Source: Okeania hirsuta (GTDB lineage Bacteria > Cyanobacteriota > Cyanobacteriia > Cyanobacteriales > Microcoleaceae). From it: a stretch of 39,030 bases of DNA. The translations under genes were made by a program, and so were the position numbers. The notes beneath the pieces are model-generated. The model worked only from the letters and a program-made list of their open reading frames with translations. It was not told the origin of the DNA and ran no database searches. The DNA is taken from positions 1 through 39,030 of the forward strand of contig NZ_RCBY01000054.1 of NCBI RefSeq assembly GCF_003838195.1, given 5' to 3'. The number at the start of each line of letters is the position of its first letter. Position 1 is the first letter of the stretch. This document shows positions 7,893 through 36,576 of this stretch, in pieces.

Positions 7893-9273
7893 ATGGTAGA
7901 CTACTAATCATATCACACAAAAAACTATCAAAAGGCAAACTATTAAGAAGACAGAAGAAAATACTCATCCTTTACCCCCTGGTAGTTTTGGACTTCCATT
8001 AATTGGTGAAACCATTGATTTTCTAAGAGATCGTAATTTCGCTGATCGACGAGAAGAAAAATACGGTACTATCTTCAAAACTCATATATTAGGTCGTCCT
8101 ACAATTGTAATGATTGGCCCTGAAGCAAACCGTTTTATTCTCCAGACTCATTTTGACCATTTTTCCTGGCATGACGGTTGGCCGAAAAGTTTTCACGAAC
8201 TTTTAGGCAGATCTCTTTTCTTGCAAGAAGGGGAAGAACATCAAAGAAACCGTCGATTATTAATGCCTGCTTTTCATGGGCAAGCTTTAAGGAATTATTT
8301 TGCAACTATGGTTGATACTATCAATCGTTATTTGGTGAAATGGTCTGAGATGAAACATCTGACTTTACTACCAGAAATGAAACAGATGACCTTTGAAGTT
8401 GCGAGTATATTGCTTTTAGGTAGTAAACCAGGAACAAAAACTGCACTTTTGTCTCGAAAATTTAGCGAACTAACCGCAGGTTTATTTAGTTTTCCCATTA
8501 GGCTACCTTTTACTACTTATACCTCAGCGTTGAAGGCGAGAGATTTTTTACTGAAGCATATAGAAGCAGAAATCAGAGAAAGAGAAAAAAATCCGACTCA
8601 AGATGCACTAAGTTTATTAATCGAAACTAGAGATGAAGAAGGGAATAGTCTCAGTCTGGAAGAAATTAAAGTGCAGGCACTACTTATGCTATTTGCTGGA
8701 CATGAAACCACAACATCAATGCTTACCTCATTATGTATGGCATTAGCACAACATCCTGATATTTTGGCACAAGCAAAAGCGGAGCAAGAAAATTTAAAAC
8801 AGCAGGGAGAGTTGAGTAATGAGCAATTCAAACAAATGCCTTATTTAGAGCAAGTGCTCAAAGAAGTAGAAAGACTATATCCTCCTGTTGGTGGAGGTTT
8901 TCGAGGTGTGGTTAAACCTTTTACCTATAACGGTTACTATGTGCCTCAAGGTTGGCAGGTATTATATCGTATTGAAAAAACTCACCAAGATCGAAGAGTT
9001 TATACTAATCCTTCCGAATTCGATCCAGAGCGTTTTGATCGAGAAAGAGCTGAAGATAAGAAGATGGATTATAGCTTAGTTGGTTTTGGTGGAGGTTCCA
9101 GATTTTGTTTGGGTTATGCTTTTGCCCAAATGGAAATGAAAATTTTTAGTTCTCTACTATTGCGTAATTATCAGTGGAAATTAGAGCCAAATCAAGATTT
9201 ATCCCTTAGTTCTATTCCCAGTTTACATCCTCGTTCTGGTTTGAAAATACTAATGATGAAAAATTCAGGCTAG
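7893..9273 (+). CDS. Cytochrome P450, CYP120-like, N-terminus apparently frameshifted
   Basis: The continuous frame 7900-9273 encodes a full P450 body. It has the proline-rich hinge (HPLPPGSFGLPLIGE), the W/R helix-C region (EEHQRNRRLLMPAFHG), the I-helix AGHETTTS, the ExxR motif EVERLYPP and the haem loop FGGGSRFCLGYAFAQ with the cysteine ligand. The overall pattern resembles CYP120 enzymes; CYP120A1 of Synechocystis is a retinoic acid hydroxylase, so oxidation of an apocarotenoid or fatty-acid-like substrate is possible. The first in-frame ATG (8110) lies inside the fold, and upstream there is no ATG, GTG or TTG before the in-frame stop at 7897-7899. An ATG at 7893 in the neighbouring frame (MV, then one extra base) would supply a natural N-terminus for about 457 residues. 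Either one base was inserted near 7896-7905 or an unusual start codon is used. Confidence 0.85.
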
Positions 9274-19460: not shown

Positions 19461-20912
19461 TTATAGGATGGCAGAAACTGAAGGTTCTGTGATTAGACAC
19501 ATAGAATTTCTTGCCTTTTTGCCATGAAGGCTGGAATACTGGATATTTTCCACTTCCTGCAAGTGAAGTTCTCTCCCGTTAAATCGGAGATTATAACGGG
19601 AAGCTCGCAAGCAAAGATAATTGAACCCAAGTTTTAGAAGTTTTTTGCTTTGCTGGCGTAACGCTAGGCGAACACAGGCTGACAAACGTCTTACGCCTCC
19701 ACAAGCAGGCAAGATGATACCCATCTCGCTTAAAGCTTTATCCAATATGTTAATTGCTGCATTCTCGTCTCTGTCTAGTACCGTTCCACATTTATAACAA
19801 GAATGAGTTCTAACTGATAAAGTCTTAGGTACTTTTTGACCACAATTACTGCAATTAATCGATGTGTTATGAGGGCTAACTTTAACAACATGAACACCGC
19901 GTTTTACCGCTACTGCATTCAGTTTTTCAATAAAAGTTCCCCAGGCAACATCATAAATCGATTTTGATAGTTTAGTATTTTTAGCTAAACCTTTAAGATT
20001 AAGGTCTTCAACGGCAATTAAGTCATATTGTTTAACTAACTTATAAGCTGTTTTGTAGTGAAAATCTTCTCTTTGTCTAGCAATTTTTTGATATAATCTA
20101 GCTATTCTATTCTGTGCCTTTTTCCAGTTATTAGACCCGTTTTGTTTTCTGGGTACTTTACGCTGTTTTCTACCTAAATTAGATTCTACTTTTCTATATA
20201 AATTAGGCACAGAAACAGTCTCATCAGTATTAGTAGTTAAGATTTTTTTTAAGCCTACATCAATACCTATAGCAGTCTTAATATTATCTGTAGGAATTAA
20301 ACCCACCCCTTCAGTTCCCCTCCCTGGAAGGGTTAGGGGAGGGTTATCTTCCCAGCTAAAACTCACATAATAGCCGTCAGCTTTTTTGGTTATAGTTGCA
20401 GTTTTGATAACAAACCCATCTGGTATAGGTCTATGAACTATTACAGGAATAGTACCAAACTTACTAATAATGATTTGCTTGCTATCAAACTTAACTACTG
20501 CTCTAGGATGATTGACTCTACTGAAACAAAATGACCTTAACTTACCTGATTTTTTGAATCTAGGTCGCCCTCCACTTTTACCTTTCTTTTCAGATATTAA
20601 CCAACGTTTCCAACCTTTATCTAGTCTTTGCAAGTTAATTTGCTGGACTTCAGAATAGATTTCCTGATAATCTGGAAACAACTTTTTTATCTGTTTAAGT
20701 GCTGATTGCTGAAAATAATAATCTGGTAGCTGAGGAATCTCACCAATAGGACATGACACTATCGAACAACGGTCAATTTGAAATCTGGTTCTATTCAACC
20801 AGTCTAGCCTTTGACCTAGGGCGTAATTCCAATGCCTTCGCAGGTGTTCCAACCAATAATCAATTTTGGCTGACTGTTCAGCAGTGGGGTTGATTTTATA
20901 GCAATGAGTCAT
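19461..20912 (-). CDS. tnpB: TnpB (IS200/IS605-type RNA-guided nuclease), intact RuvC residues
   Basis: 483-residue OrfB/TnpB. The catalytic triad is intact: Asp218 (IGIDVGLKK), Glu302 (VEDLNLKG) and Asp382 (LDRDENAA). The zinc-finger cysteines are at about 354, 357, 372 and 375. The ORF is longer than the usual roughly 400 residues for two reasons. A repeat-derived stretch (residues about 190-209, PPLTLPGRGTEGVG...) is inserted in frame just before the RuvC-I strand. And about 80 residues after ...NILDKALSEMG are not typical and overlie hairpin-rich DNA. No tnpA lies nearby, so movement would need a transposase supplied in trans. It sits directly upstream of ccdA. Confidence 0.9.
   Translation of the reverse strand: MTHCYKINPTAEQSAKIDYWLEHLRRHWNYALGQRLDWLNRTRFQIDRCSIVSCPIGEIPQLPDYYFQQSALKQIKKLFPDYQEIYSEVQQINLQRLDKGWKRWLISEKKGKSGGRPRFKKSGKLRSFCFSRVNHPRAVVKFDSKQIIISKFGTIPVIVHRPIPDGFVIKTATITKKADGYYVSFSWEDNPPLTLPGRGTEGVGLIPTDNIKTAIGIDVGLKKILTTNTDETVSVPNLYRKVESNLGRKQRKVPRKQNGSNNWKKAQNRIARLYQKIARQREDFHYKTAYKLVKQYDLIAVEDLNLKGLAKNTKLSKSIYDVAWGTFIEKLNAVAVKRGVHVVKVSPHNTSINCSNCGQKVPKTLSVRTHSCYKCGTVLDRDENAAINILDKALSEMGIILPACGGVRRLSACVRLALRQQSKKLLKLGFNYLCLRASRYNLRFNGRELHLQEVENIQYSSLHGKKARNSMCLITEPSVSAIL
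19551..19600 (-). ncRNA. Candidate omega-RNA/right-end hairpins of the tnpB element
   Basis: Just inside the 3' end of the tnpB frame lie two stems, CACTT-cctgc-AAGTG (19551-19565) and CCCGTTA...TAACGGG (19575-19581 with 19594-19600). TnpB guide RNAs derive from this part of IS200/IS605 elements, so this is the expected place. The exact ends cannot be set from sequence alone. Confidence 0.35.
20286..20346. repeat. Dispersed GC-rich repeat inserted in frame within tnpB
   Basis: The bases include ACCCACCCCTTCAGTTCCCC and CTGGAAGGGTTAGGGGAGGG. They resemble the GC-rich repeats at 12286-12323, 29222-29251 and 31921-31958. In tnpB they encode a Pro/Gly-rich stretch with no counterpart in the family, so the repeat appears to have inserted without breaking the frame. 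Confidence 0.5.
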
Positions 20913-23166: not shown

Positions 23167-24136
23167 ATGTCTTTAATAGAAGAAATAACAGTTAAAAATG
23201 TAGACCACTTAGGAATAGTTGCAGGACTAATTGATGAGATAGGAATAGTGGAAATAATTAACCAAAAATTAGGAGTAGATAATCGAGAAAAAATTACTTC
23301 AGGGCAAGTAATAAAAGCTTTGATTCTCAATGGATTAGGAATGGTATCACGTCCTTGATATTTGTGAGCGTCAGTTCTTTGAAGACAAGGCGGTAGAAAA
23401 ATTATTAGGTACAGGTATAAAATGTGAATATTTAAACGATGATACTCTCGGTAGAGTTATGGATGATATCTATCAATTAGGATTAACAAATTTATTTATA
23501 GAAATAGGATTATTAGTTATCAAAAAGTTTAACATTGAGACTAAATATACTCACTTAGATTCAACATCGTTTCATCTTCATGGAGAATATGAGCATATTG
23601 AAACTACTGAAAATCATCAAAAAATACCAATATTAATGACAAAGGGATATTCCCGCGACCATCGACCAGATTTGAAACAATGTATACTAGTATACATTGT
23701 GAGTGGCCATAGCGGAATACCATTATTTATGAGAACTGCTGATGGTAATGAATCAGATCAAGCAGTATTTGGTCAAATTTTAGCCTGGGTGAAAAAACAA
23801 ATAAAACTAGATAGTATTATAGTCTGTGATAGTGCTTTATATAGCCAAAATAATATCCAATTAATCTCAAATTGAAAATGGATAACTCGAGTCCCAATGA
23901 CTTTAAAAAAAGCCAAAGAAGTAATTGAATTAGACCTTGAAGAAGTAACAATCCCCCCGGAAACAGATCCATAAATTCAAGAAATAACCAGGATTATTCA
24001 AGAAAAAGGATATAAATGGTTGGAGCAAAATGTAACTTATGCGGGTGTCAAACAAAGGTGGTTAATTGTAGAAAGTGAATCCCGGAAAAAAAGTGATATC
24101 CAGAAGTTAAAATTGAAATTAAATATCATAAATTAG
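23167..24136 (+). pseudogene. IS1634-type (DUF4277) transposase pseudogene
   Basis: The start is intact (MSLIEEITVKNVDHLGIVAG, typical of the DUF4277 N-terminus). A one-base frameshift near 23356 separates ILNGLGMVSR from LDICERQFFEDKAVE. The second frame carries THLDSTSFHLHGEY and VYIVSGHSGIPLFMRTADGN, stretches of the DDE transposase core. In-frame stops follow at 23873-23875 and about 23971-23973, with homologous sequence (KWITRVPMTLKKAKE) continuing between them. The end is truncated after LKLKLNIIN. About 320 codons remain of an expected 500 or more. Confidence 0.85.
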
Positions 24137-24952: not shown

Positions 24953-25627
24953 AAATAAAGAGGTGTTGGTAAATTAGGATTTTCATCTTTATCTATTATG
25001 CCTTTTGTTTTTTACCTTCTTTCAAATACCAACCTGTCTTATCAAAAAATTTTTCTTCCTTAAAGGTGAAATGCTTGTTGAGCAGCTTTAATATTTTCTG
25101 GTGTTTCAGAAATGGGAACAGTTACAGAAATATTATCAACTAAACAAATCAAACAAGGTGTGGGGGAGGCCGCACGAATAGCTTGAATAGCCAACCCGTA
25201 GGCCAGTAAAGCATGATGGGAAGTTTGCCAGACTTCTTTATTGGTATTAACCAGAGTACCTGGAGCGTGGGAAAGGTCAGAATTGACGGCATAACCGAGA
25301 TGCGTAAAACAAGTAATTTCATTGATAGTTATCCAGTTAGTGATGCGATCGCCCAACCGACTTAGCACAGCAGTTACATAGTCTGCAAAATCTTTTGCCA
25401 TTTCCCGACTACGCCAAGACCGATATAAGTCTTCCAAGGTTTGAGGACTATCCCAATGAAATAGAGTTGCATGGGGAGTAATATTGTGTTGATGCAGACA
25501 GTCTACTAAACGGCGATAAAAATCTATCCCTGCTTCATTGACTATACCCCGACCATCAGGAATAATGCGTGGCCAAGCAATACTAAAGCGATAATGTTTG
25601 ACACCAAGTTGCGCCATTAGTTTAATA

Positions 25628-26461: not shown

Positions 26462-26830
26462 CTAAATTCCTAATTTTAGTTTGAATCCTTCTTCTCGTTT
26501 ATCCCCTTCTAGGGTATTTTCTAGAGGATTTTCTGATTTAGGCAGATCTGAGTTTACAGGAATCGAGACTCCTGGTATCACTTCTACGTTTTGTTGTTGA
26601 CGACGCAGTTCATAAGGTTTAATTCCATTTGTAGGAGAGCTACTAGATTTTGGGTCATCAGTATATGTGCTGTAATTATCTTTATTAATGGATCTGCCTT
26701 CTACTGTCTTCAGAGAGTCTCCAGAAAGAGTTGTTTCTCCAATTTGAGGATTATTTGATTGTGCTCTAGTAGTAGGAGTATAAGATAGCAAGATTGCACC
26801 AATACCTAAGATAGTAATGATTGTCTTCAT
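26462..26830 (-). CDS. Small secreted protein of unknown function
   Basis: I choose ATG 26830 (MKTIITILGIGAILLSYTPTTRAQ), giving 122 residues; the frame also extends two codons to a TTG. The first 22-24 residues form a signal peptide with a likely cut after TRA or RAQ. The mature part is hydrophilic, Ser/Asn/Pro-rich, without cysteines, with segments such as IPGVSIPVNSDLPKSENPLE. No known family is recognised. It lies downstream of the HlyD-type gene on the same strand, but 650 bp away. Confidence 0.65.
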   Translation of the reverse strand: MKTIITILGIGAILLSYTPTTRAQSNNPQIGETTLSGDSLKTVEGRSINKDNYSTYTDDPKSSSSPTNGIKPYELRRQQQNVEVIPGVSIPVNSDLPKSENPLENTLEGDKREEGFKLKLGI

Positions 26831-27481
26831 TATCAATTTTCTTTTATTGTTGTGTAGGGTTTATATCCTTTATTGTACTATCTAATTATTGAAAATGCTA
26901 GGAAAACTTTTTCTAAATGTAGAAATAATACTTCAGTATAACTACTAAATTTATTTTAATTTTAATGTAAAAAAACAATCTAAGCACAAATGCTGATAGT
27001 TCTTTACAAATACTATTTTTCGTCAAAAAAAGTATATTTTTTTAGATAAATTAGTCACTTATTACTTTCTTCAGTAAAAACATTAAATTAAACTTAAAAT
27101 ATTCAACAAAAACAACTGTTGAAGTTGCAACTTTAGTGTGTACTATACCTAATGATTATTTCAGGAATCGGAGATACTAATTATAGTAAAGAGTTTAAAT
27201 TTCAATCCAGATAAAAAAATATTTGTCAAGTTACTTCTGAACTTTACTGATAAATTTTTCAAACATAAACATAAATGTAAAAAAATAGTAGGTGTTAGAG
27301 AGGTATTTTCAACAATTCTTTATGGAAAAAAGTAGGAAAAGGTGTAAAATAGTATCTTAGCAATTAATCTATAAAATTATTAGAAAAATTGATATTAATT
27401 ATACCAAATTTTTTCAGATTATTCGCTAGTAATATTTTTGACTCCTCATCCTCCTCTGCCCAACACAAAGGAAATAAAAAC
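26831..27481. other. AT-rich non-coding spacer
   Basis: Strongly AT-rich (many A and T runs) with no protein-like frame, no clear element ends and no terminator with a stem plus T-run after the HlyD gene. It may contain the promoter of the secreted-protein gene on the minus strand. Confidence 0.35.
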
Positions 27482-28561
27482 TTAAAAATCACTTAATAGC
27501 CTAATCTTTCTGAGAACAAAAGTTAACACGGTTTCTTGGGAAGAAATTATATCAGCTCGACCTTCCATTCCTGGTTGGATTAGATATTGACGACCGCTCC
27601 TAACTAAGTAAGGTTTTTCAGGTTCTATAGTCACTTCATAATAAGCTTCACGAAGTGCTTCTGAGGTGATAGCATCTGGAGAAATTGAATTGACAGTTCC
27701 TTTGAGAATACCATAGTCCGGAAAAGGATACGCTGAAATCCTCATTTGCACAGGTAGGCCGACTTTTACCCTAGCAATATCTGCTGCTGTTACTCTGCCT
27801 TTAAATACTAAAGGTGCATTACTAGGAACAATCTGAGCGATCGCTGCTCCTGACTTTACAGTTTGCCCAGGATTACGCAAAGATAGTTTAAAGATAGTAC
27901 CATCTACAGGGACTCGAATTACACTATTATCAAGTTTAATATCTACTTTTTCTAGTTCTCTGGTACCTGCAGTCAAATCTTTAATTAATTTTGTCCGCTT
28001 CACAATTAGGTCTCGTCGATCCTTAGCAAATTGTTGCGCAACTGTAGGTAAAGATTGAGATAAATCTAAAATGGCTGATTCAACAGATGCATTATCTATT
28101 TTATTGTTTGCTGTTGTACTCGATCTAGATTTCTGAAAAGTCTGAGGTTTCGCGGTAGCTAAAATTTGAACTTCTACAGCAGAAATTTGTTGATTTATCT
28201 GTTCTAGTTCTACCTCACACTGTTTTATTTTTTCCTGTAGTTGATTTTTTTGGCGATTAAGTGCAGATTCATCTATGCGTGCGATGGTCTCTCCCATCTC
28301 AACAGTTTGATTTTCACTTACTTCTACACTTTCAACTTTACCTTCTGTAAGTGCCTGAACAATTCTTACGTCTCCTGTTGGTCGAGCAATTGCTTCAGTT
28401 CTTACAGTAGGGTTGTACTTTACTACACTCATTAGAGCAATAGCGACACCAAATGTTCCTACTAAAAACATTCCTCCTATTTTGCTCCAAGGACTTAGAG
28501 GAGGGAGAAATTCATCACTTTCTAGAGGTTGTAGTTCTACATAATCAGAATTATTTAACAT
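27482..28561 (-). CDS. HlyD-family export adaptor (membrane fusion protein)
   Basis: 359 residues. A cytoplasmic N-terminus of about 26 residues is followed by one membrane helix (about 27-48, IGGMFLVGTFGVAIALMSVV). Two lipoyl half-motifs (VEVSENQTVEMGETIARID and IRVPVDGTIFKLSLRNPGQT) flank a coiled-coil hairpin (about 100-205). A beta-barrel domain completes the fold. Such adaptors join an inner-membrane ABC transporter, often one with a C39 peptidase that cuts double-glycine leaders, to export peptides or proteins. No ABC transporter gene is in the window. Three double-glycine peptide genes lie about 2.8 kb away in the opposite direction, beyond an IS66-type insertion, and are plausible cargo. 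Confidence 0.9.
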   Translation of the reverse strand: MLNNSDYVELQPLESDEFLPPLSPWSKIGGMFLVGTFGVAIALMSVVKYNPTVRTEAIARPTGDVRIVQALTEGKVESVEVSENQTVEMGETIARIDESALNRQKNQLQEKIKQCEVELEQINQQISAVEVQILATAKPQTFQKSRSSTTANNKIDNASVESAILDLSQSLPTVAQQFAKDRRDLIVKRTKLIKDLTAGTRELEKVDIKLDNSVIRVPVDGTIFKLSLRNPGQTVKSGAAIAQIVPSNAPLVFKGRVTAADIARVKVGLPVQMRISAYPFPDYGILKGTVNSISPDAITSEALREAYYEVTIEPEKPYLVRSGRQYLIQPGMEGRADIISSQETVLTFVLRKIRLLSDF

Positions 28562-29468: not shown

Positions 29469-31154
29469 ATGACGCAAAAACTATCATCAGAGAAATTAGT
29501 GGCCACATTACTGCAATCAATTGACCCAGGTTTGATTGCAGATGAAGGAGTGCGTCAAACAGTAGAACTATTACTGAATCTGGTAGAACAACTCAACTCA
29601 AAAGTTATACAATTAGAAGAACAAAACCAAAAGCTGCGGGACGAAAACAACCGTCTCAAAGGTGAACTTGGCAAACCAGACATCAAAGCTAGCAAAAAGA
29701 GAGAATCTCAGAAAAACCACTCGTCAGAGAAAGAACGAAAAACTCCAAGAGAACATAGTAAAACCAGTAAAAAGGAGACAATAAAAGTAGACCGAGAAGA
29801 AATAGTATTCTATTCTACGGAAGAGCTACCAGCAGATGCAGAGTTTAAAGGTTACGAAGAAGTAATTGTTCAAGACATTTTACTAAAAACAGATAACGTA
29901 TTGTTTCCCAAGGAAAAATACTACTCACCTCAAAACCAAAAAACTTTTTTGGCAGAATTACCACAAGGTTACGAAGGAGAATTTGGTCCAGGAATTAAAA
30001 CCTTAATCATTAGTTTGTACTATGGGGGAAATATGACCCAAGGCAAACTGTTAGAGTTTTTAGAGGATATGGGCATCTCCATTTCAGCAGGGCATTTGTC
30101 TAATTTATTAATCAAAAACCAGGCTTTTTTTGAGAGAGAAAAAAGCGAAATCTATGAAGCAGGACTCCAAAGTAGTCCATGGCAGCACTTTGACCAAACG
30201 GGAGCCAGAGTGGGAGGAGTAAACTATACCACGAATGTAGTGTGTAACCCTCTTTATACGGTTTACTTTACCACTGCCAACAAAGATAGATTAAGTGTGC
30301 TTCAAGGTTTACTGGACGGACGAGAACTAGAGTTCCGACTCAATCCCCTGACTTTTTCACTGTTGGAGACCTTGCAATTACCAGATAAATGGAAGAAGTT
30401 TCTCGAATTGTTGCCCCAAGAAACTGTATTGAATTCCACAGAGTTTAATGAGCTACTAGATAGGTATTTACCATTATTAGGAGATCTCCAACGTAAACGT
30501 ATTTTAGAAGCAGCAGCAATCGCTTTTTACCATCACCAAACTGACTGGCCAGTCATACAAACTCTCGTAAGTGATGATGCACCTCAATTCAAGTTACTAA
30601 CAGAGAATTTGGCTTTGTGTTGGGTACATGAGGGACGACATTATAAAAAGTTAACTCCCCTAGTTGATGATCATCAAAAACTCCTAGAGCAATTCTTGGA
30701 TGATTTTTGGGATTACTATGGAGATTTACTGGCTTATAGAGATGCTCCTACACTTTCAACTGCTAACAGATTACGCTCTGAATTTTCTCGACTTTTCACT
30801 ACTGAGAGTGGTGATCAGCAGTTGGATGAACGAAAACAATTAACTGCGGCCAAAATTTGGGAATTGTTGCTGGTGTTAGACCATCCGGAATTACCATTGC
30901 ATAATAACCCGGCAGAGTTAGCTGCTAGGACGATGGTTCAACGACGCAATATCAGTTATGGAACTCAGACGGCTGAGGGGACTGCATCTTGGGATACTTT
31001 TATGTCCCTGGTTGCTACTACTCGTAAACTGGGATTGAGCTTTTTTGAATATGTACGCGATCGCATTACCCAGACTAGGAATATTCCCCCTCTGGCAACT
31101 ATTATTTACGATCGCTCTTCTGTGATTTCTTTTGGTTGGTCTTGGCAGCTATAA
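29469..31154 (+). CDS. IS66-type transposase, apparently intact
   Basis: 561 residues. The N-terminal leucine-zipper/coiled-coil (LNLVEQLNSKVIQLEEQNQK) and lysine-rich linker are typical of IS66-family TnpC proteins. Candidate catalytic residues are the Asp in QHFDQTGARV (about 242), an Asp in LVSDDAPQF (about 369) and the Glu in HNNPAELAAR (about 481). The frame has no stop or shift. The accessory genes tnpA and tnpB of IS66 are not seen, so this is a single-gene variant. Element ends were not identified with confidence. It sits between the HlyD gene and the peptide genes. Confidence 0.9.
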   Translation: MTQKLSSEKLVATLLQSIDPGLIADEGVRQTVELLLNLVEQLNSKVIQLEEQNQKLRDENNRLKGELGKPDIKASKKRESQKNHSSEKERKTPREHSKTSKKETIKVDREEIVFYSTEELPADAEFKGYEEVIVQDILLKTDNVLFPKEKYYSPQNQKTFLAELPQGYEGEFGPGIKTLIISLYYGGNMTQGKLLEFLEDMGISISAGHLSNLLIKNQAFFEREKSEIYEAGLQSSPWQHFDQTGARVGGVNYTTNVVCNPLYTVYFTTANKDRLSVLQGLLDGRELEFRLNPLTFSLLETLQLPDKWKKFLELLPQETVLNSTEFNELLDRYLPLLGDLQRKRILEAAAIAFYHHQTDWPVIQTLVSDDAPQFKLLTENLALCWVHEGRHYKKLTPLVDDHQKLLEQFLDDFWDYYGDLLAYRDAPTLSTANRLRSEFSRLFTTESGDQQLDERKQLTAAKIWELLLVLDHPELPLHNNPAELAARTMVQRRNISYGTQTAEGTASWDTFMSLVATTRKLGLSFFEYVRDRITQTRNIPPLATIIYDRSSVISFGWSWQL

Positions 31155-31241
31155 ATCATTGCCTACCCCATTATATTGAATGGATACTACAATTCCTTCA
31201 TAAATTCAAGAACTCAGCTAAAGATTACTACTATTTAATTC

Positions 31242-31358
31242 AGGACTTACGCATGAGGTACGAAGAACTAGGATTTGAGATGGCTTTCCGTTCCGGACTG
31301 CTGCGCAAACCCTGTGGATTGCTTCGGACGAAAATTAGGTTGCAGGTGCGTAAGTCCT
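31242..31358. mobile_element. 117-bp MITE with AGGACTTACGCA ends
   Basis: AGGACTTACGCA (31242-31253) and its exact inverse TGCGTAAGTCCT (31347-31358) bound the element. These ends are common among small cyanobacterial insertion elements (from memory). No clear target duplication is seen. The 76-codon frame at 31136-31366 runs through it and is not a gene. It lies 34 bp upstream of the first peptide gene and may affect its expression. Confidence 0.8.
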
Positions 31359-31392
31359 ATAATTAAAATTATTAACCATGAGGAAGTTAATT

Positions 31393-31608
31393 ATGCAAGA
31401 ACTTCAAAAAAAGCAACTTTTTACAAAACTTAATCCTAAAGAATCTACCTACATAAATGGTGGTTACAATGAAAATTATCAAAATCGCCGTAATTTTTTA
31501 GGTTTTCAACTTTGTCCTCGCAGTTATTATGGTGATAACCGCTATTATTCTGACTACCAACCTTATAATTCTAATTACTATAAAGGGAATATAAAAGGCT
31601 ACTACTAA
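31393..31608 (+). CDS. Double-glycine-leader peptide 1, Tyr-rich core
   Basis: 71 residues from ATG 31393, with GAGG 9 bp upstream; an upstream ATG at 31378 overlaps that ribosome site and is less likely. The leader MQELQKKQLFTKLNPKESTY plus INGG is exactly 24 residues and ends in Gly-Gly, the cleavage signal for C39-peptidase ABC exporters. The 47-residue core begins YNENYQNRRNFLGF and has 12 tyrosines and one cysteine (LCP). It is less arginine-rich than peptides 2 and 3. The function of the mature peptide is unknown: bacteriocin-like, structural or adhesive roles are all possible. Confidence 0.8.
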   Translation: MQELQKKQLFTKLNPKESTYINGGYNENYQNRRNFLGFQLCPRSYYGDNRYYSDYQPYNSNYYKGNIKGYY

Positions 31609-32498
31609 AGTATTTTTTGTGTTTATACTTCTATTGATTAAAGCACAATTAATTGTAATTTTATAGTAGCGATATAGTAGCGATCTAGTAGTGAAGTACT
31701 ATTATATAGTGCTGATTATTGTGCTACAAAAAAATATTTATCTCCAATACCTCCATTGCAATTTTAAATATATATAACCCTGATGGGAGATCTTATACAA
31801 ATTCCCATGGATTAATGCTATGCTTAGGTAGCACTTCAGTTATCAAGTAATTAACACAGGTTGAATAACTTTTTTGCTAATTAGTAGCTCAGTTAATGTT
31901 AATAATTATTATCTTTACTTCCCCTCCTGGGAGGGGGAGGGGCGAGGGGTGGGTTCCCTCCCTGTACAGACCTTACAGACAAGGTCTTGTAGGGGCAAAC
32001 GGCCGTTTGCTCCTACTCTCCTACCCCCGGCTCAAGAAAATGTAGAAAAGTTTTTGATAAATGGTATTAGGTATCTCTAGAAAAGAGGAATTAGGAGTAA
32101 ATAATTGATGTGTATAGTGCAATAATTGATTTGATTTTTGATTATTGGAAATGTCTATTCATGTACTTAAATATAGGGAGATAGAGAGATGGTAAATATG
32201 GGGGGGATTTTCACCTTTTTCCCCTATTCTATTTCTCGATATCCTGACTTCTGTACGTCGTCCTACCGATGGCTCCCCTACCTGAGTCCTTTGCCAAAAA
32301 TTCGTACCTTTACAAAGATACCAAATGGCCTCTATATAGCATTTTTAATATTTGCTTAGTGATTTTTGATGTGAAATCACCACAATATAAATAGTTATCC
32401 GGATTTTACCCACTTATGAAGAATACTTAAATATAATTCCTACTATATATAGGGATTATTACACATTACTAATCTCATCAAACTTGAGGAAAATCTTC
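31609..32498. repeat. Spacer with GC-rich repeats and palindromes between peptide genes
   Basis: Bases 31921-31958 are a near-exact copy of the GC-rich block at 12286. A hairpin AGACCTT-acagac-AAGGTCT lies at 31968-31987 and a 28-bp near-perfect palindrome centred on AAACGGCCGTTT at 31989-32016. Bases about 31664-31690 hold repeated TAGTAGCGAT units. No gene is seen; the frame at 31874-32080 runs through the repeats. Confidence 0.5.
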
Positions 32499-32687
32499 AT
32501 GCAAGAAACAAAAAATAATCAACTCTTTACTGAAATTTCTTCAGAAGAGTCTGCCACTATTAATGGTGGTCATGGCTATTATGGTCGTCGGTATTATAGT
32601 TATGGCTATCGTAGTTATTACCGTAGTCACCCTGTACGTTACTACTCCCGTCGTCGCTACTATGGCTATAGGTCTAACTGCTACTAA
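32499..32687 (+). CDS. Double-glycine-leader peptide 2, Tyr/Arg-rich core
   Basis: 62 residues from ATG 32499, with GAGGA 8 bp upstream; the in-frame TTG at 32484 overlaps that site. The leader MQETKNNQLFTEISSEESAT plus INGG is 24 residues. The 38-residue core (HGYYGRRYYSYGYRSYYRSH... to ...GYRSNCY) contains 14 Tyr and 9 Arg and ends in Cys-Tyr. It has no hydrophobic segment. The composition is extreme compared with ordinary class II bacteriocins. Leader identity with peptides 1 and 3 shows a common exporter. Confidence 0.85.
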   Translation: MQETKNNQLFTEISSEESATINGGHGYYGRRYYSYGYRSYYRSHPVRYYSRRRYYGYRSNCY

Positions 32688-32882
32688 TTTAAACTTATTA
32701 GTTGAATTCCAAAGCACTTTTAAAGAGCTTTTTAGCAACCTCTAAAGAATCGCTAATCAAAAAAAATTCTCCGGATTCTGGAATTCACCAAGGAAAAATA
32801 CATTAGAAATAGCAAGATAGTTAAATAAATATCGATAATTTTTAACCATCTTGTAAACACAATTAATCAAGAGGATAATCTT

Positions 32883-33086
32883 ATGCAAGAAACTCAAAAC
32901 ACTGAATTATTTTCTGAGCTTTCTACCGAAGAATCTGCCACTATTAATGGTGGTCATCATTTCGATGATTGTTACGATTATGGTCGTTTTCGACGTTATT
33001 CTCGTCGCCCTGTGAGTTATCACTACCATAGTTATCGCTATAGTCGTCCTGTACGTTACAGCTATAGACGTTACGATTGCTACTAA
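32883..33086 (+). CDS. Double-glycine-leader peptide 3, Tyr/Arg/His-rich core
   Basis: 67 residues from ATG 32883, with AAGAGG 8 bp upstream. The leader MQETQNTELFSELSTEESAT plus INGG is 24 residues. The 43-residue core starts HHFDDCYDYGRF and ends RRYDCY; it has 11 Tyr, 10 Arg, 4 His and 2 Cys. The motif RPVRY is shared in similar form with peptide 2 (HPVRY), so the two cores are paralogous. A strong terminator follows at 33142. Confidence 0.87.
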   Translation: MQETQNTELFSELSTEESATINGGHHFDDCYDYGRFRRYSRRPVSYHYHSYRYSRPVRYSYRRYDCY

Positions 33087-33141
33087 AAATTGGCTATATA
33101 ATTACAACTTTTTAAGTTGAATTTATAGTTGAATTAAATTT

Positions 33142-33170
33142 AGCACCTATAGTTTTATAGGTGCTTTTTT
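33142..33170 (+). terminator. Rho-independent terminator after peptide 3
   Basis: A 9-bp perfect stem, AGCACCTAT (33142-33150) with ATAGGTGCT (33157-33165), has a 6-nt loop and is followed by a T-run. It lies 55 bp past the stop of peptide 3 on the same strand. Confidence 0.88.
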
Positions 33171-33431
33171 ATAACAATTGAATTCTGAGTACTGGAATTT
33201 AGACTAAATAGTTGAACAGATTTTCAAAGAAAAGAGGTACAAAGTTTTATTGCTCTAGGGAACACCGGATCTGGGAACAGGCAACAGGAAATACAGGAAT
33301 AAATAGTCTTATAACTGTACCTCACTATCTTTAAAAGTGCTGTAAGCTGCTTGGCAACTGCTATACCTACTTCCCCTCTTGATTGCGAATATCGCACATT
33401 TCATTTTCTCAAGCATCAACCAAAATTATCA

Positions 33432-33841
33432 GGTGTGTGGAGGGAAAATATCTACTATCGCAATAGTCATTTACCAAAATTATCAGGTGTGTGGAGGAAA
33501 AATATCTACTTCCTCTCTTTGTTGCGAATGTCGCAATAGTCATTTCATTTCGTTAAGCACCATTGATCAGGTGTGTGGAGAGAAAATATCTACTTCCCCT
33601 CTCTGTTGCGAATGTCGCAATAGTCATTTCATTTTATCAAGCACCATTGATCAGGTGTGTGGAGGAAAAATATCTACTTCCCCTTTCTGTTGCGGATGTC
33701 GCAATAGTCATTTCATTTTATCAAGCACCATTGATCAGGTGTGTGGAGGAAAAATATCTACTTCCCCTTTCTGTTGCGGATGTCGCAATAGTCATTTCAT
33801 TTTATCAAGCACCATTGATCAGGTGTGTGGAGGGGACATGA
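33432..33841. repeat. Tandem array of 84-bp units
   Basis: Units begin GGTGTGTGGAGG at 33432 (a shortened 54-bp unit), 33486, 33570, 33654, 33738 and 33822 (partial). The period is exactly 84 bp for the full units, which differ at only a few bases. Most units contain a dyad TTGCGA-ATG-TCGCAA or a one-base variant. Because 84 is a multiple of 3, several frames stay open; the longest (33379-33846, 155 codons) encodes a 28-residue cysteine-rich repeat (VCGGKISTSPFCCGCRNSHF). Whether it is translated is unclear: no ribosome site precedes its ATG. Confidence 0.85.
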
Positions 33842-33847
33842 TGTAAT

Positions 33848-33960
33848 ATCATTTCCGCTTGAATACTTATTCTTTGGTAGAAGGAAGACAGAAGGCAGAA
33901 GATTTTCTTCCCATTGTGATGTAATTTTATACACAAACGATGCTACCGGACATGATATAA
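33848..33960. mobile_element. Diverged ATATCATGTCCGG-family element
   Basis: The left end reads ATATCATTTCCGCTTGAATA and the right end GATGCTACCGGACATGATAT, an imperfect inverted pair about 113 bp apart. The interior has a purine tract (GAAGGAAGACAGAAGGCAGA). It lies between the 84-bp array and glgP. An inverted pair GATATAACAAACC (33954-33966) and GGTTTGTTATATC (33994-34006) follows glgP on its strand but has no T-run. Confidence 0.5.
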
Positions 33961-34017: not shown

Positions 34018-36576
34018 TTAAATTTGACAATAACGTTGTAAACCTGCTGTTTCCTGACTATATGCTTCCATATCAATTTTCACAGGTTCGACATTCCAAA
34101 TTTCCTGACAATATTCATTAATAGTACGGTCAGCTGAAAATTTACCCATATTAATAGAGTTAATAATCGACATCCGAGTCCAATATTCGGGGTTACGATA
34201 AGCCTGATTAACTCTTTCCTGACAATCAATATAAGTCTGATAATCAGCAAACAACATATATTCATCTTTTCTTAGTAAAGATTCTACAATTGGATGGAAT
34301 AAATGTGGTTTGCCAGGTGAGAAATAACCAGAAACAATACGGTCAATAACCTGCCGTAATTCTTGGTTATAAGTATAGTATTGCTCCGGATTATATCCTT
34401 GATATTTTAATGCTTTAGCCTCTTCAACATTCAATCCAAATAGGAAGAAATTTTCAGCACCAACAGCTTCGCGAATCTCAATATTTGCCCCATCAAGAGT
34501 ACCAATAGTTAAAGCACCATTTAGGGAAAATTTCATATTGCCAGTACCAGAAGCTTCCTTTCCAGCAGTAGAAATTTGCTCAGAAAGGTCGGCAGCAGGA
34601 TAAATTCGCTGACCGATAGATACAGAGAAATTAGGTATAAAAACTACCTTGAGGCGATCGCGTACATCTGGGTCATTATTTACTATTTCCCCTACAGCAT
34701 TAATTAATTTAATGATTAATTTTGCCATATAATAACCTGGTGCAGCCTTCGCGCCAAAAATGAAAGTGCGGTGCAAAATATCTACATCTGGATTCTGTTT
34801 AATTCGATTATAAAGGGTAATAATATGCAGCACATTCAACAGTTGACGCTTATATTCATGGAGTCGTTTTACCTGAATATCAAACAGAGAGTTAGGATTA
34901 ACTACAATTCCTATTTTTTGCTGAATATAAGCAGCTAAATCTTGCTTATTTTCATGTTTAATCTGACTCCAATTATGACGAAATTCAGGGTCATCAATAA
35001 ACCTCTCAAGCTGCTTAATTTCCTCTAAATTTTTAATCCAATTTTTGCCAATTTTATCCGTAATTAGTAATGCCAACTTCGGGTTACTAATTAATAACCA
35101 ACGACGAGGAGTAATACCATTAGTTTTATTCGTAAATTTATCAGGCCAAAATTCGTAGAAATCTCTCAAAACATCTGTTTTCAACAGTTGAGTATGCAAT
35201 GCTGCCACACCATTGATAGCATGAGCGCCAGTACAGGCTAAATGAGCCATCCGCACGCGTTTTTCAGGAAATTCTTCGATCAGAGACATCCGTGCCAACC
35301 GCCCATCATCTCCTGGATAACGTTTCTTAACTTTTTCTAGGAAACGGAAATTAATTTCGTAAATAATTTCAAGATGTCGTGGTAGCAGAGTTGCGAACAT
35401 ACTGACTGGCCAACGTTCTAGAGCTTCTGATAGTAGTGTATGGTTAGTATAGCCAAAGGTGTTTTGAGTAATATTCCAAGCTTTTTCCCACTCCATATCA
35501 TGTTCATCTACTAACAGGCGCATTAATTCAGCGACCCCTATAGAGGGGTGAGTATCATTGAGCTGAATGGCTGCTTTTTCGTGAAAGTTATCTAAATTGG
35601 GATTCCGTGACAAGTGAGTACGAATGATATCTTGCAAGGAACAACTGATGAAGAAATACTGTTGCTCTAAGCGCAACATTTTGCCTTGAAATATATTATC
35701 GTTGGGATAGAGAACTTTAGAAATATTTTCAGAGGAAGTTTTGTCTTCAACGGCGCGGTGATAGTCACCGGAGTCAAAAACTTGCAGGTCAAATTCATTA
35801 CTTGCTTTAGCGCTCCACAGGCGTAGAGTATTTACTGTGTTGGTATTGTACCCAGGCACAAGAGTATCGTAGGGCATTCCAATGACTGTAAGTTCGGGTA
35901 TCCATCTGACCCGATAGTTGCCTTGTTTGTCTGGGTATGCTTCTGTGTAACCACCGAATTTTATTTGTACTTGGTCTTCATGGCGAGGAATTTCCCAAGG
36001 GTTGCCCAGACTTAACCATTTATCTGGCTGTTCAACTTGATAGCCATTTTGAATTTGTTGTTTGAAAATGCCAAATTCATAACGAATGCCGTAGCCTACT
36101 GCGGGAATTTCTAGGGTAGCGAGGGAGTCTAGAAAACAAGCAGCTAGACGACCTAAACCACCATTGCCTAAACCGGGTTCTGGTTCTTTTTCGATTAAGT
36201 CATCAAGTTTAAGACATGATTCTTCGAGAGCTTGACGCGCAACTTCCCAACAACCTACATTGACTAGGTTTTTAGCTAGTTGGCGACCCATCAGAAATTC
36301 GGCTGAGAGATAGTATACTGTTTTGACGTTTTGATGGAAGTATGTTTTTGTGGTTTTGAGCCAACGGTGTAACAAACGGTCGCGAACTGTATATGCTAAC
36401 GCCATATAATAATTATAGGTGGTAGCAAATTCTATATCTTTCCCCTGTAAATAATATAAGTTATCGGCGATCGCTCGTTTGATGGTATCGAGGCTAGTTC
36501 CTGTGCGATCGTCTTCTACTTGAATTTTTACTTTTTCTGTGTACGATGCACTCTGTTCTTGATGTACTTCTTGCAT
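34018..36576 (-). CDS. glgP: Glycogen/alpha-glucan phosphorylase
   Basis: 852 residues, the normal length of the family. It catalyses phosphorolysis of alpha-1,4-glucan to glucose 1-phosphate, mobilising stored glycogen in the cytoplasm. Landmarks in order are [51 protein letters not shown], and the pyridoxal-phosphate lysine region [20 protein letters not shown] (about residue 680). No break is seen. It is transcribed alone; the upstream side is a 766-bp AT-rich spacer. Substrate length preference (glycogen or maltodextrin) cannot be told from sequence here. Confidence 0.97.

What the first reader, a model, noticed from the sequence alone, without database searches (positions are those of the whole stretch)
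31393..33086. Three Tyr/Arg-rich peptides with 24-residue double-glycine leaders
Seen: three small genes share a 24-residue leader ending INGG, each with a strong ribosome site, and cores with 11-14 (peptide 1: 12) tyrosines in 38-47 residues; peptides 2 and 3 also have 9-10 arginines each and end in Cys-Tyr. Known: double-glycine leaders are cut by C39-peptidase ABC exporters, and cyanobacteria have many such precursor genes. Inference: cores this rich in Tyr and Arg do not look like ordinary pore-forming bacteriocins; they could be adhesive, cross-linking, metal-binding or surface-matrix peptides.
Basis: partly seen in the sequence, partly recalled or inferred. Interest (0 to 1): 0.82.

Follow-up and report, generated by a model that had tools for sequence, protein, structure and literature searches.

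The report
Exported tyrosine/arginine-rich peptides in filamentous cyanobacteria
A filamentous marine cyanobacterium carries a set of small genes for probably exported peptides very rich in tyrosine and arginine, found in its relatives beside a dedicated cut-and-export pump, which look more like sticky surface or mat-building material than like ordinary antibiotics.

Summary
In detail: three small + strand genes with 24-residue INGG leaders and Tyr-rich cores, two also Arg-rich. They belong to a conserved cassette: divergent hlyD, up to four such peptides (A-D), then a 736-residue peptidase-containing ABC exporter (PCAT). It is contiguous in Trichodesmium-type and Microcoleaceae genomes. In the window's genus (5 of 5 genomes searched) D and the PCAT lie on another contig; here an IS66 element also separates hlyD from A.

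Of 80 loci fetched by PCAT match, 58 have upstream double-glycine peptides; 21 are Tyr/Arg-rich (18 in the window's family, 3 in f32). In f33 0 of 32 are; peptides there are mostly CTB-like (NCBIfam CTB model: 26 of 31 tested, against 0 of 55 Tyr/Arg peptides).

Arg is used rather than Lys (935:30 in 109 cores) and Tyr rather than Phe; no fold is predicted; composition is kept while sequence drifts, with core pN/pS not clearly below 1 in close relatives. Best reading: C39-processed, secreted, multivalent matrix or adhesive peptides, parallel to EbfG of Synechococcus elongatus. Export is well supported by anatomy, not shown; the matrix function is inference.

The parts
31393..31608 (+). peptide A (finding's peptide 1): 24-residue leader ending INGG + 47-residue core (12 Tyr, 4 Arg, 1 Cys)
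   Evidence: orthologues in L006-L012, L017, L063-L066
32499..32687 (+). peptide B (peptide 2): leader + 38-residue core (14 Tyr, 9 Arg, only 9 kinds of residue)
32883..33086 (+). peptide C (peptide 3): leader + 43-residue core (11 Tyr, 10 Arg, 2 Cys)
27482..28561 (-). hlyD: membrane-fusion (adaptor) protein of the exporter, divergent from the peptides; 77-97% identical in the cassettes of Okeania, Trichodesmium-type and Microcoleaceae relatives
   Evidence: (TIGR01843, 160 bits, below its cut-off of 208.65; PF13437, 70.6 bits, over its cut-off of 22.2)
29469..31154 (+). IS66-family transposase gene of an inserted element between hlyD and peptide A; not part of the system, absent from the relatives' cassettes that were fetched
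33142..33165 (+). terminator-like hairpin followed by a T run, 55 bases after peptide C
   Evidence: 3 terminator-like sites found in the region, mean 1.1 in shuffles; two of the three are this hairpin on either strand
31380..31392 (+). ribosome-binding site region of peptide A (GAGGA 8 bases before ATG)
   Evidence: read
32486..32498 (+). ribosome-binding site region of peptide B (GAGGA 8 bases before ATG)
   Evidence: read
32871..32882 (+). ribosome-binding site region of peptide C (GAGGA 7 bases before ATG)
   Evidence: read

Best explanation
The three genes are precursors of a family of exported, low-complexity, cationic Tyr/Arg-rich peptides. The leader (consensus LF..xS.EESATINGG) is recognised and cut after Gly-Gly by a peptidase-containing ABC exporter (PCAT), encoded on another contig of this genome beside a fourth precursor. 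The HlyD protein of the window links the PCAT to the outer membrane, and the 38-54-residue cores are released outside. There they most likely act not as folded toxins but as disordered multivalent sticky peptides: Tyr and Arg side chains attract each other and acidic sheath polysaccharide, and Cys (and perhaps oxidised Tyr) may lock them, so that they form or glue the sheath, mat or colony matrix. Shown here: genes, conservation, linkage to HlyD/PCAT, an intact C39 domain by sequence, composition. Inferred: cleavage, export, disorder outside, cohesion, matrix role.
For: Linkage: hlyD | A-B-C-D | PCAT contiguous in L010, L012/L062 (one locus) and L065; without C in L017; without B in L063 and L064, where the PCAT runs to the contig end. 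In the window genome D lies 431 bases upstream of the PCAT on C129, and D's leader is 20 of 24 identical to peptide C's (by eye). The PCAT has C39, ABC membrane and ATPase domains over Pfam cut-offs and aligns over residues 23-728 with the solved PCAT 4ry2, the DCGAACL stretch included. The Tyr/Arg class follows the PCAT lineage: 39 rows need 6 changes against 31.4 for shuffled labels (near-copies help such clustering). Composition of 109 distinct cores: Tyr 26.6%, Arg 19.8%, Lys 0.6%, Phe 1.4%; 107 of 109 have Cys; 108 of 109 positive at pH 8.1; the 90 f33 sister cores: Tyr 3.2%, Arg 4.0%, Cys in 4, positive in 34. Arg over Lys and Tyr over Phe suits cohesive disordered proteins: in yeast Lge1 1-80, changing Arg to Lys raised the saturation concentration about 10-fold and Tyr to Ala strongly impaired condensation (PMC10406433, passages); Tyr is reported a stronger sticker than Phe in condensates (PMC12677899, abstract). 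AlphaFold2 on the peptide C precursor finds no fold (mean pLDDT 51.2). Precedent: EbfG1-4, small double-glycine proteins whose efficient secretion needs the C39 protein PteB, are involved in S. elongatus biofilm; EbfG1-3 form amyloid, EbfG4 is at the cell surface and in the matrix (PMC4997328; PMC9981879; passages). Three haem-peroxidase homologues in the genome could oxidise Tyr.
Against: No expression, secretion or phenotype data. The window's cores lack the EbfG amyloid motif. Core pN/pS is not clearly below 1 in close relatives. Arg columns are not constrained, and the Tyr signal is not clearly above that in control proteins. No gene linkage to a Tyr-oxidising enzyme was seen; the peroxidases are on other contigs. 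In this genus hlyD and the PCAT are on different contigs, so that they work together is inferred from relatives. Arg/Tyr-rich cationic peptides could also be antimicrobial. 22 of 80 loci fetched by PCAT match show no peptide in the stretch fetched, so adjacency is not universal.
Confidence: 0.5

Rival explanations
1. Antimicrobial peptides: the cassette is a bacteriocin (microcin-like) system, and the cationic Tyr/Arg cores disrupt membranes of competitors.
For: Same exporter type as class II bacteriocins/microcins; the general class was catalogued as bacteriocin clusters by Wang et al. 2011 (PMC3140520, passages); 108 of 109 cores positively charged; cores diversify. Peptide C has weak leader matches, all under their cut-offs, to CTB bacteriocin (E 0.017), BlpC (0.17), ComC (0.038) and Bacteriocin_IIc (0.1).
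Against: Few aliphatic residues (1-3 of 38-47 in the window's cores); 0 of 55 peptides match a bacteriocin family at E 0.01; no immunity gene was recognised, though the search was limited to ATG ORFs of 25 or more residues at window 31160-33900 and short minus-strand ORFs there (32757-32849, 33309-33416) have partial matches in 7 and 3 of 8 relatives.
Confidence: 0.22
2. Metal- or mineral-binding peptides (iron, dust particles) through Tyr, His, Asp and Cys.
For: Asp/His/Cys residues right after the cleavage site of peptide C, and a His/Tyr-rich relative with a run of eight His in L069; 107 of 109 cores have Cys.
Against: Arg, the second main residue, is not a usual metal ligand (recalled); peptide B of the window has one Cys and no Asp or Glu; Cys and His number varies.
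Confidence: 0.1
3. RiPP natural products: Tyr side chains are cross-linked or modified by an enzyme before export, the cassette being one part of a pathway.
For: Leader-core anatomy; a cytochrome P450-like gene lies in the window (8110-9273; name recalled from its sequence, not searched), and P450s cross-link Tyr in some RiPPs (recalled).
Against: No modifying enzyme stood out in the ORF lists of the four loci read (L010, L011, L017, L018). The P450 is 18 kb from hlyD and has no match in the 158 fetched loci, but most of these do not reach so far upstream, so that is weak. Core lengths and sequences drift.
Confidence: 0.1
4. Signalling peptides read by neighbouring cells.
For: C39 exporters also export signals; HetC is proposed to (PMC10986499, passages).
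Against: Up to four parallel variants, drifting sequence, no receptor gene recognised in the cassette.
Confidence: 0.05

Closest known systems
EbfG1-4 / PteB of Synechococcus elongatus PCC 7942 (biofilm-enabling double-glycine proteins)
   Same: Four small double-glycine proteins encoded together near a C39 peptidase transporter in a cyanobacterium; secreted; proposed matrix proteins (PMC4997328, PMC9981879; passages).
   Different: The EbfG amyloid hotspot motif (Ala-hydrophobic-Asn-Ile-small) cannot occur in the window's cores, which hold no Ala; 'tyrosine' has 0 occurrences in the main text of either paper. Direct sequence comparison was not made.
CTB family bacteriocin precursors (NCBIfam NF038167)
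   Same: Sister peptides: LF-type leaders, located upstream of PCATs 63-68% identical to the query PCAT.
   Different: Their cores are poor in Tyr, Arg and Cys; the model matches 26 of the 31 tested (of 90 distinct f33 cores) at E <= 0.01, not all over its cut-off, and 0 of the 55 tested Tyr/Arg peptides (of 109).
Group III cyanobacterial bacteriocin gene clusters (Wang, Fewer, Sivonen 2011)
   Same: HlyD plus short-type C39 ABC transporter plus several precursors; Trichodesmium erythraeum IMS101 is listed with one group III cluster.
   Different: The main text does not mention tyrosine (0 occurrences); its precursor tables were not readable here, so the peptides may be listed there.
Disordered Tyr/Arg sticker proteins (yeast Lge1 1-80, FUS family)
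   Same: Tyr/Arg-rich low complexity, Arg doing better than Lys (PMC10406433, passages).
   Different: Intracellular and eukaryotic; analogy of physics, not homology.

Membership tests
Double-glycine precursors exported by C39 PCAT/HlyD systems | leader of about 20-25 residues ending in Gly-Gly with conserved hydrophobic/acidic positions | tested here: met
   window peptides score 40.3-57.3 on the leader profile, 6,207 shuffled ORFs at most 3.8 (the profile was built in part from such leaders)
Double-glycine precursors exported by C39 PCAT/HlyD systems | cognate PCAT and HlyD genes | tested here: met
   contiguous in relatives, split in the window genome
Double-glycine precursors exported by C39 PCAT/HlyD systems | cleavage after Gly-Gly and export | not testable with these tools
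   needs biochemistry or mass spectrometry
CTB family bacteriocin (NF038167) | score over the curated cut-off of 32 bits | tested here: not met
   peptide C 15.3 bits, E 0.017; 0 of 55 members at E <= 0.01; positive control 26 of 31 sisters at E <= 0.01, best E 2.5e-26 (the first of them is itself under the cut-off, 21.4 bits)
NHLP and Nif11-type (N11P) precursors | match to an NCBIfam model of those leaders (that the library holds such models is recalled) | tested here: not met
   no such match in 55 members at E <= 0.01
Wang group III bacteriocin cluster | HlyD and short-type PCAT (C39, TM, ATPase; no N-terminal nucleotide-binding CAP_ED domain) | tested here: met
   (three PCATs scanned); definition
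Wang group III bacteriocin cluster | no LanM, SurA or extra ABC transporter in the cluster; position in the group III clade | tested here: inconclusive
   none recognised on reading the ORF lists of four loci, but no family search of the flanks and no reference clade in the tree
Antimicrobial class II bacteriocin / microcin | killing activity | not testable with these tools
   needs an assay
Antimicrobial class II bacteriocin / microcin | adjacent immunity gene | tested here: inconclusive
   besides the peptides and a frame overlapping peptide B, only short ORFs (30-56 residues) have matches, partial or in some relatives only; ATG starts and window 31160-33900 only, D-PCAT stretch not tested
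EbfG | amyloid hotspot motif Ala-(Phe/Ile)-Asn-Ile-(Gly/Ser) | tested here: not met
   no Ala in the three window cores; motif
EbfG | required for biofilm | not testable with these tools
   needs mutants

The most novel reading that the evidence does not exclude
A bacterial lineage secretes purpose-built Tyr/Arg sticker peptides that condense outside the cell, alone or with acidic polysaccharide, into an adhesive or sheath phase, later hardened by Cys or Tyr oxidation: an extracellular peptide condensate glue, delivered by a bacteriocin-type exporter, that holds mats and colonies of Trichodesmium and its kin together.
Probability: 0.27. Interest if true: 0.83.

Novelty: new variant of a known kind. 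Interest (0 to 1): 0.55.

Why it matters
The export system is known, but its cargo here is of a kind for which no Pfam or NCBIfam model was found. One exporter lineage carries mostly CTB-like peptides in one cyanobacterial family and Tyr/Arg-rich chains in another, so that 'bacteriocin cluster' may be a wrong label for many of these loci. If the matrix reading holds, it gives a gene-level handle on how Trichodesmium and mat-forming Microcoleaceae build colonies, sheaths and mats, and a natural source of short adhesive or condensate-forming peptides.

Tried and rejected
Chance or non-coding ORFs: rejected by conservation across genera and the compositional odds.

Regular Tyr periodicity (repeat protein): Y-Y spacings resemble shuffled cores. 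Some dipeptides are over-represented (PV 6.3-fold, RP 3.0, GY 1.65, RR 1.55; same call), from motifs such as RPV.

Selection on Tyr positions: with classes set by the majority residue, Tyr columns change less (p 0.005 and 0.0002). With classes set by an outgroup residue, this holds in Trichodesmium-type genomes (p 0.0004) but not in Okeania (p 0.18), and Tyr is also better kept than average in PCAT+HlyD (p 0.0002 and 0.027). I do not claim it as specific. Arg columns show no excess constraint in any of these tests.

Folded toxin: AlphaFold2 on the peptide C precursor with a 55-row alignment gave mean pLDDT 51.2, pTM 0.16; no fold search was run on so poor a model.

Local tailoring enzyme: see the RiPP rival. 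Tyrosinase PF00264: no match, but the control genomes were silent too, so no conclusion. PF03098 haem peroxidase: 3 matches, all on other contigs.

Literature: eight searches (only the listings and openings of abstracts seen except for the papers named) showed no paper that describes Tyr/Arg-rich double-glycine peptides of cyanobacteria. Okeania multi-omics paper PMC7825088: passages only, counts bacteriocin clusters without sequences. Supplements (Wang 2011 precursor tables) could not be opened here.

Dropped rows and limits: L062 (same locus as L012) was left out but is. L015 was left out and of the alignments. PCAT matches under 600 residues were left out of the tree. In some searches peptides with leader score under 20, cores under 12 or over 140 residues, other strand or downstream of the PCAT were dropped; identical cores were counted once. 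Label: Y+R of at least 30%, at least 28%. L006 peptide B has no start Met in the expected frame; it is in the dN/dS sets, where it inflates the leader value of peptide B. The L010 HlyD row carried its stop codon (flagged by the script; removed). The 80 PCAT loci were picked by hand from the list (not all that were listed, itself cut); places already fetched for their peptides were mostly left out. One row labelled 'none' (L096) has peptides and hlyD of the same genome about 16 kb away (L074). In one search at most 15 candidates a genome were scored, so 79 of 388 may be low.
Full report
1. What is there. The window (39,030 bases, the whole of contig C490 of an 8.79-Mb genome in 716 contigs) holds three small + strand genes at 31393-31608, 32499-32687 and 32883-33086. 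Each has GAGGA 7-8 bases before its ATG, a 24-residue leader ending INGG, and a Tyr-rich core: 12 Tyr and 4 Arg in 47 residues, 14 and 9 in 38, 11 and 10 in 43. Against nine long window proteins the odds for so much Tyr+Arg are about 1e-6, 1e-15 and 7e-12. A terminator-like hairpin lies 55 bases after the third gene.

2. Who else has it. A scan of one genome per species (84,980 species; short patterns, so close relatives only) with peptide 3 gave 12 loci: 10 titled Okeania, 1 Trichodesmium erythraeum, 1 Microcoleaceae. Four orthologous kinds can be told apart: A, B and C (the window's three) and D, whose core has a Cys-x-Cys motif near its start. The window's genome has one each of A, B, C and D (4 matches at E <= 10). 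A profile search of 388 genomes of the order (drawn evenly from a larger group, the window's own included) matched 79, among them all 5 genomes with the window's genus code, each with 4 or 5 matches (at most 15 candidates a genome scored).

3. The cassette. In L010, in L012/L062 (one T. erythraeum locus) and in L065 the order is hlyD (divergent), A, B, C, D, PCAT. L017 has hlyD, A, B, D, PCAT. L063 and L064 have hlyD, A, C, D and a PCAT that runs to the contig end. L066, a 3.5-kb contig, has A, B, a D-like peptide and the start of a PCAT. L011 has hlyD and A-D and ends before any PCAT. In the window's genome hlyD is at 27482-28561 (-), then comes an IS66-type element (transposase 29469-31154), then A, B and C; D and the PCAT lie on contig C129, 431 bases apart. 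The other four genomes of the genus code are split in the same way: A-B-C and D-PCAT matches lie on different contigs, in one case on contigs of 528,760 and 668,626 bases, so this is hardly an assembly gap. The IS66 transposase matches, among the 158 fetched loci, only those from the window's own contig; the relatives' DNA aligns on both sides of it. A relative of it at 74% DNA identity lies on a Dolichospermum plasmid. The gene at 26462-26836 and the phosphorylase gene at 34018-36576, which flank the cassette, have matches in L007, L008 and L009.

4. The exporter looks intact. The 736-residue PCAT has Peptidase_C39, ABC membrane and ABC ATPase domains over Pfam's cut-offs and aligns over residues 23-728 with the solved PCAT 4ry2, the DCGAACL stretch that holds the catalytic Cys included (that this Cys is the catalytic one is recalled). 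It is strongly constrained (pN/pS 0.05 within the genus). The genome has four other C39 matches; in the 7-10-kb stretches fetched around them no peptide of this leader type was seen, and the whole-genome profile search found no further copy.

5. The cargo class follows the exporter lineage. I searched the same 388 genomes with the PCAT (214 match at E <= 1e-180), picked 80 places by hand from that list by their PCAT match, and read the double-glycine peptides upstream of each. 58 of 80 have at least one in the stretch; 22 have none. 21 of 58 are Tyr/Arg-rich: 18 in the window's family f1 (1 more with peptides there is not; 4 have none) and 3 in f32 (3 more there are not). 0 of 32 are in f33 (2 more have none), 0 of 1 in f17 (2 more have none); the 14 loci of the other families have none. 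With the loci first found by peptide search, f1 has 42 loci with a PCAT match, 38 with peptides, 36 with a peptide of at least 30% Tyr+Arg (L012 and L062 counted twice). On a tree of 100 exporters and two paralogues the 39 Tyr/Arg rows need 6 changes, against 31.4 for shuffled labels (0 of 500 as low; near-copies favour this); 33 of them lie in one supported group of 38 rows. Tyr/Arg-rich relatives also occur in f14, f9 and f28, in f14 and in one of two f9 loci without a PCAT in the stretch; L057 (f14) has five identical copies.

6. What the cargo is like. 109 distinct Tyr/Arg cores (4,718 residues) are 26.6% Tyr and 19.8% Arg, with 0.6% Lys and 1.4% Phe; 935 Arg to 30 Lys. 107 of 109 have Cys, 45 of 109 at the last or last but one place; 108 of 109 are positive at pH 8.1. 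The 90 f33 cores have 3.2% Tyr, 4.0% Arg, and Cys in 4 of 90. The class is defined by Tyr+Arg content, so that content is circular; the choice of Arg over Lys and Tyr over Phe is partly so, the Cys is not. Of the sisters I gave 31 (of 90) to NCBIfam and 26 match its CTB model at E <= 0.01; of the Tyr/Arg peptides I gave 55 (of 109) and none does (one unrelated chance match at E 0.009). Pfam gives one chance match in the same 55. Peptide C alone has weak leader matches under the cut-offs, CTB at E 0.017 among them. AlphaFold2 finds no fold. Tyr spacing is as in shuffled cores.

7. Selection. Pooled over genera, dN/dS of the cores is 0.17-0.45, though single close pairs exceed 1 (peptides B and D) on few changes. 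Within the genus pooled core pN/pS is 0.58 (0.36-1.06), in the Trichodesmium-type group 0.78 (0.59-1.12); by core it runs from 0.20 (A, Okeania) to 2.07 (B, Trichodesmium type, 0.87-9.68). Cores are therefore far looser than HlyD or PCAT (0.19 and 0.05 within the genus). Tyr columns change less than the rest, but a stricter version with outgroup-defined columns holds in only one of the two groups, and control proteins keep Tyr too. At columns whose commonest residue is Tyr or Arg, 0 of 36 Arg changes are to Lys and 2 of 42 Tyr changes are to Phe (counted); Arg to Lys needs two base changes from most Arg codons, so the first is weak. The picture is composition kept and sequence drifting; it is a description, not a proof of selection on composition.

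8. Mechanism. Shown: genes, leaders, exporter, linkage, composition. Inferred from known families: Gly-Gly cleavage by C39 and export through PCAT-HlyD and an outer-membrane channel (not searched for here). Inferred by analogy: a sticky, disordered matrix peptide. Two supports. First, in S. elongatus the small double-glycine proteins EbfG1-4 and the C39 protein PteB serve biofilm formation, and EbfG1-3 form amyloid (PMC4997328, PMC9981879; passages read). Second, a Tyr/Arg-rich disordered chain condenses, with Tyr critical and Arg better than Lys (PMC10406433; passages read; Tyr over Phe: PMC12677899, abstract). The window's cores cannot form the EbfG amyloid motif (no Ala), so if they build matrix it is by different chemistry. 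Three haem-peroxidase homologues make Tyr oxidation possible, no more.

9. Known or new. By anatomy the locus fits a group III 'bacteriocin' cluster in the sense of Wang et al. 2011 (PMC3140520; passages), who list one such cluster for T. erythraeum IMS101; their precursor tables could not be opened, so the peptides themselves may be listed there. 'Tyrosine' does not occur in that paper's main text. Eight literature searches showed no description of a Tyr/Arg-rich class. I file it as a new variant of a known kind: known export, uncatalogued cargo.

10. Names. The f and g codes are the tool's. The window's genus is taken to be Okeania because the positions of the named loci L006-L009 coincide with matches in genomes coded g1. 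Two genomes titled Okeania (L011, L017) coincide with genomes coded g5, as does the T. erythraeum one; I call g5 'Trichodesmium type'. Family names for f32, f33 and others are given by no call.

Noticed in passing
L157:2150-2369 and L158:2170-2389: In two genomes of the genus (G311, G323) a further copy elsewhere has a peptide-B-like leader on a peptide-C-like core whose second half continues in another frame: it looks like a broken duplicate.
   Followed up: partly
L060:7207-7434; also L061, L073, L074, L078 and other loci of genus code g2: The first peptide after hlyD there is not Tyr/Arg-rich but Ser/Asn-rich with a conserved tail (LFF.P..QLYLYDP...RPYKT..V), so these cassettes carry two kinds of core. 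Peptide A, first after hlyD in Okeania, is likewise the least Arg-rich of the window's three.
   Followed up: partly
L069:7024-7227: A relative's cassette has a single peptide rich in His and Tyr with a run of eight His: possibly metal-binding.
   Followed up: no
L156:1755-1934 and L140:3705-7190: Other ORFs near related PCATs with low-scoring double-glycine-like leaders (15.9 and 17.0) have a core of Arg-Thr repeats (L156) or Gly-rich cores with GGRGGRGG repeats in four copies (L140).
   Followed up: no
window 33482-33833: Tandem array of an 84-base unit, 4.2 copies, 95% matches, shortly after peptide C.
   Followed up: partly
window 19461-20912, 23459-23875, 25060-25617, 29469-31154: Mobile-element and broken genes are dense here: a TnpB-like ORF (recalled from its sequence), a DDE transposase piece, a glycosyl hydrolase family 1 fragment and an IS66 transposase.
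   Followed up: partly
G000:C334:80447-80830: The window genome also has a C39 match in an open frame of 1817 residues, which would fit the fused transporter of Wang's group VII.
   Followed up: no
L006:9601-9801: Peptide B of Okeania SIO3B5 has no Met at the expected start (leader begins with other residues), perhaps a changed start or a sequence error.
   Followed up: no
L096 and L074 (one genome, G281): PCAT and the hlyD-peptide part are on one contig but about 16 kb apart, a second, independent-looking split of the cassette.
   Followed up: no
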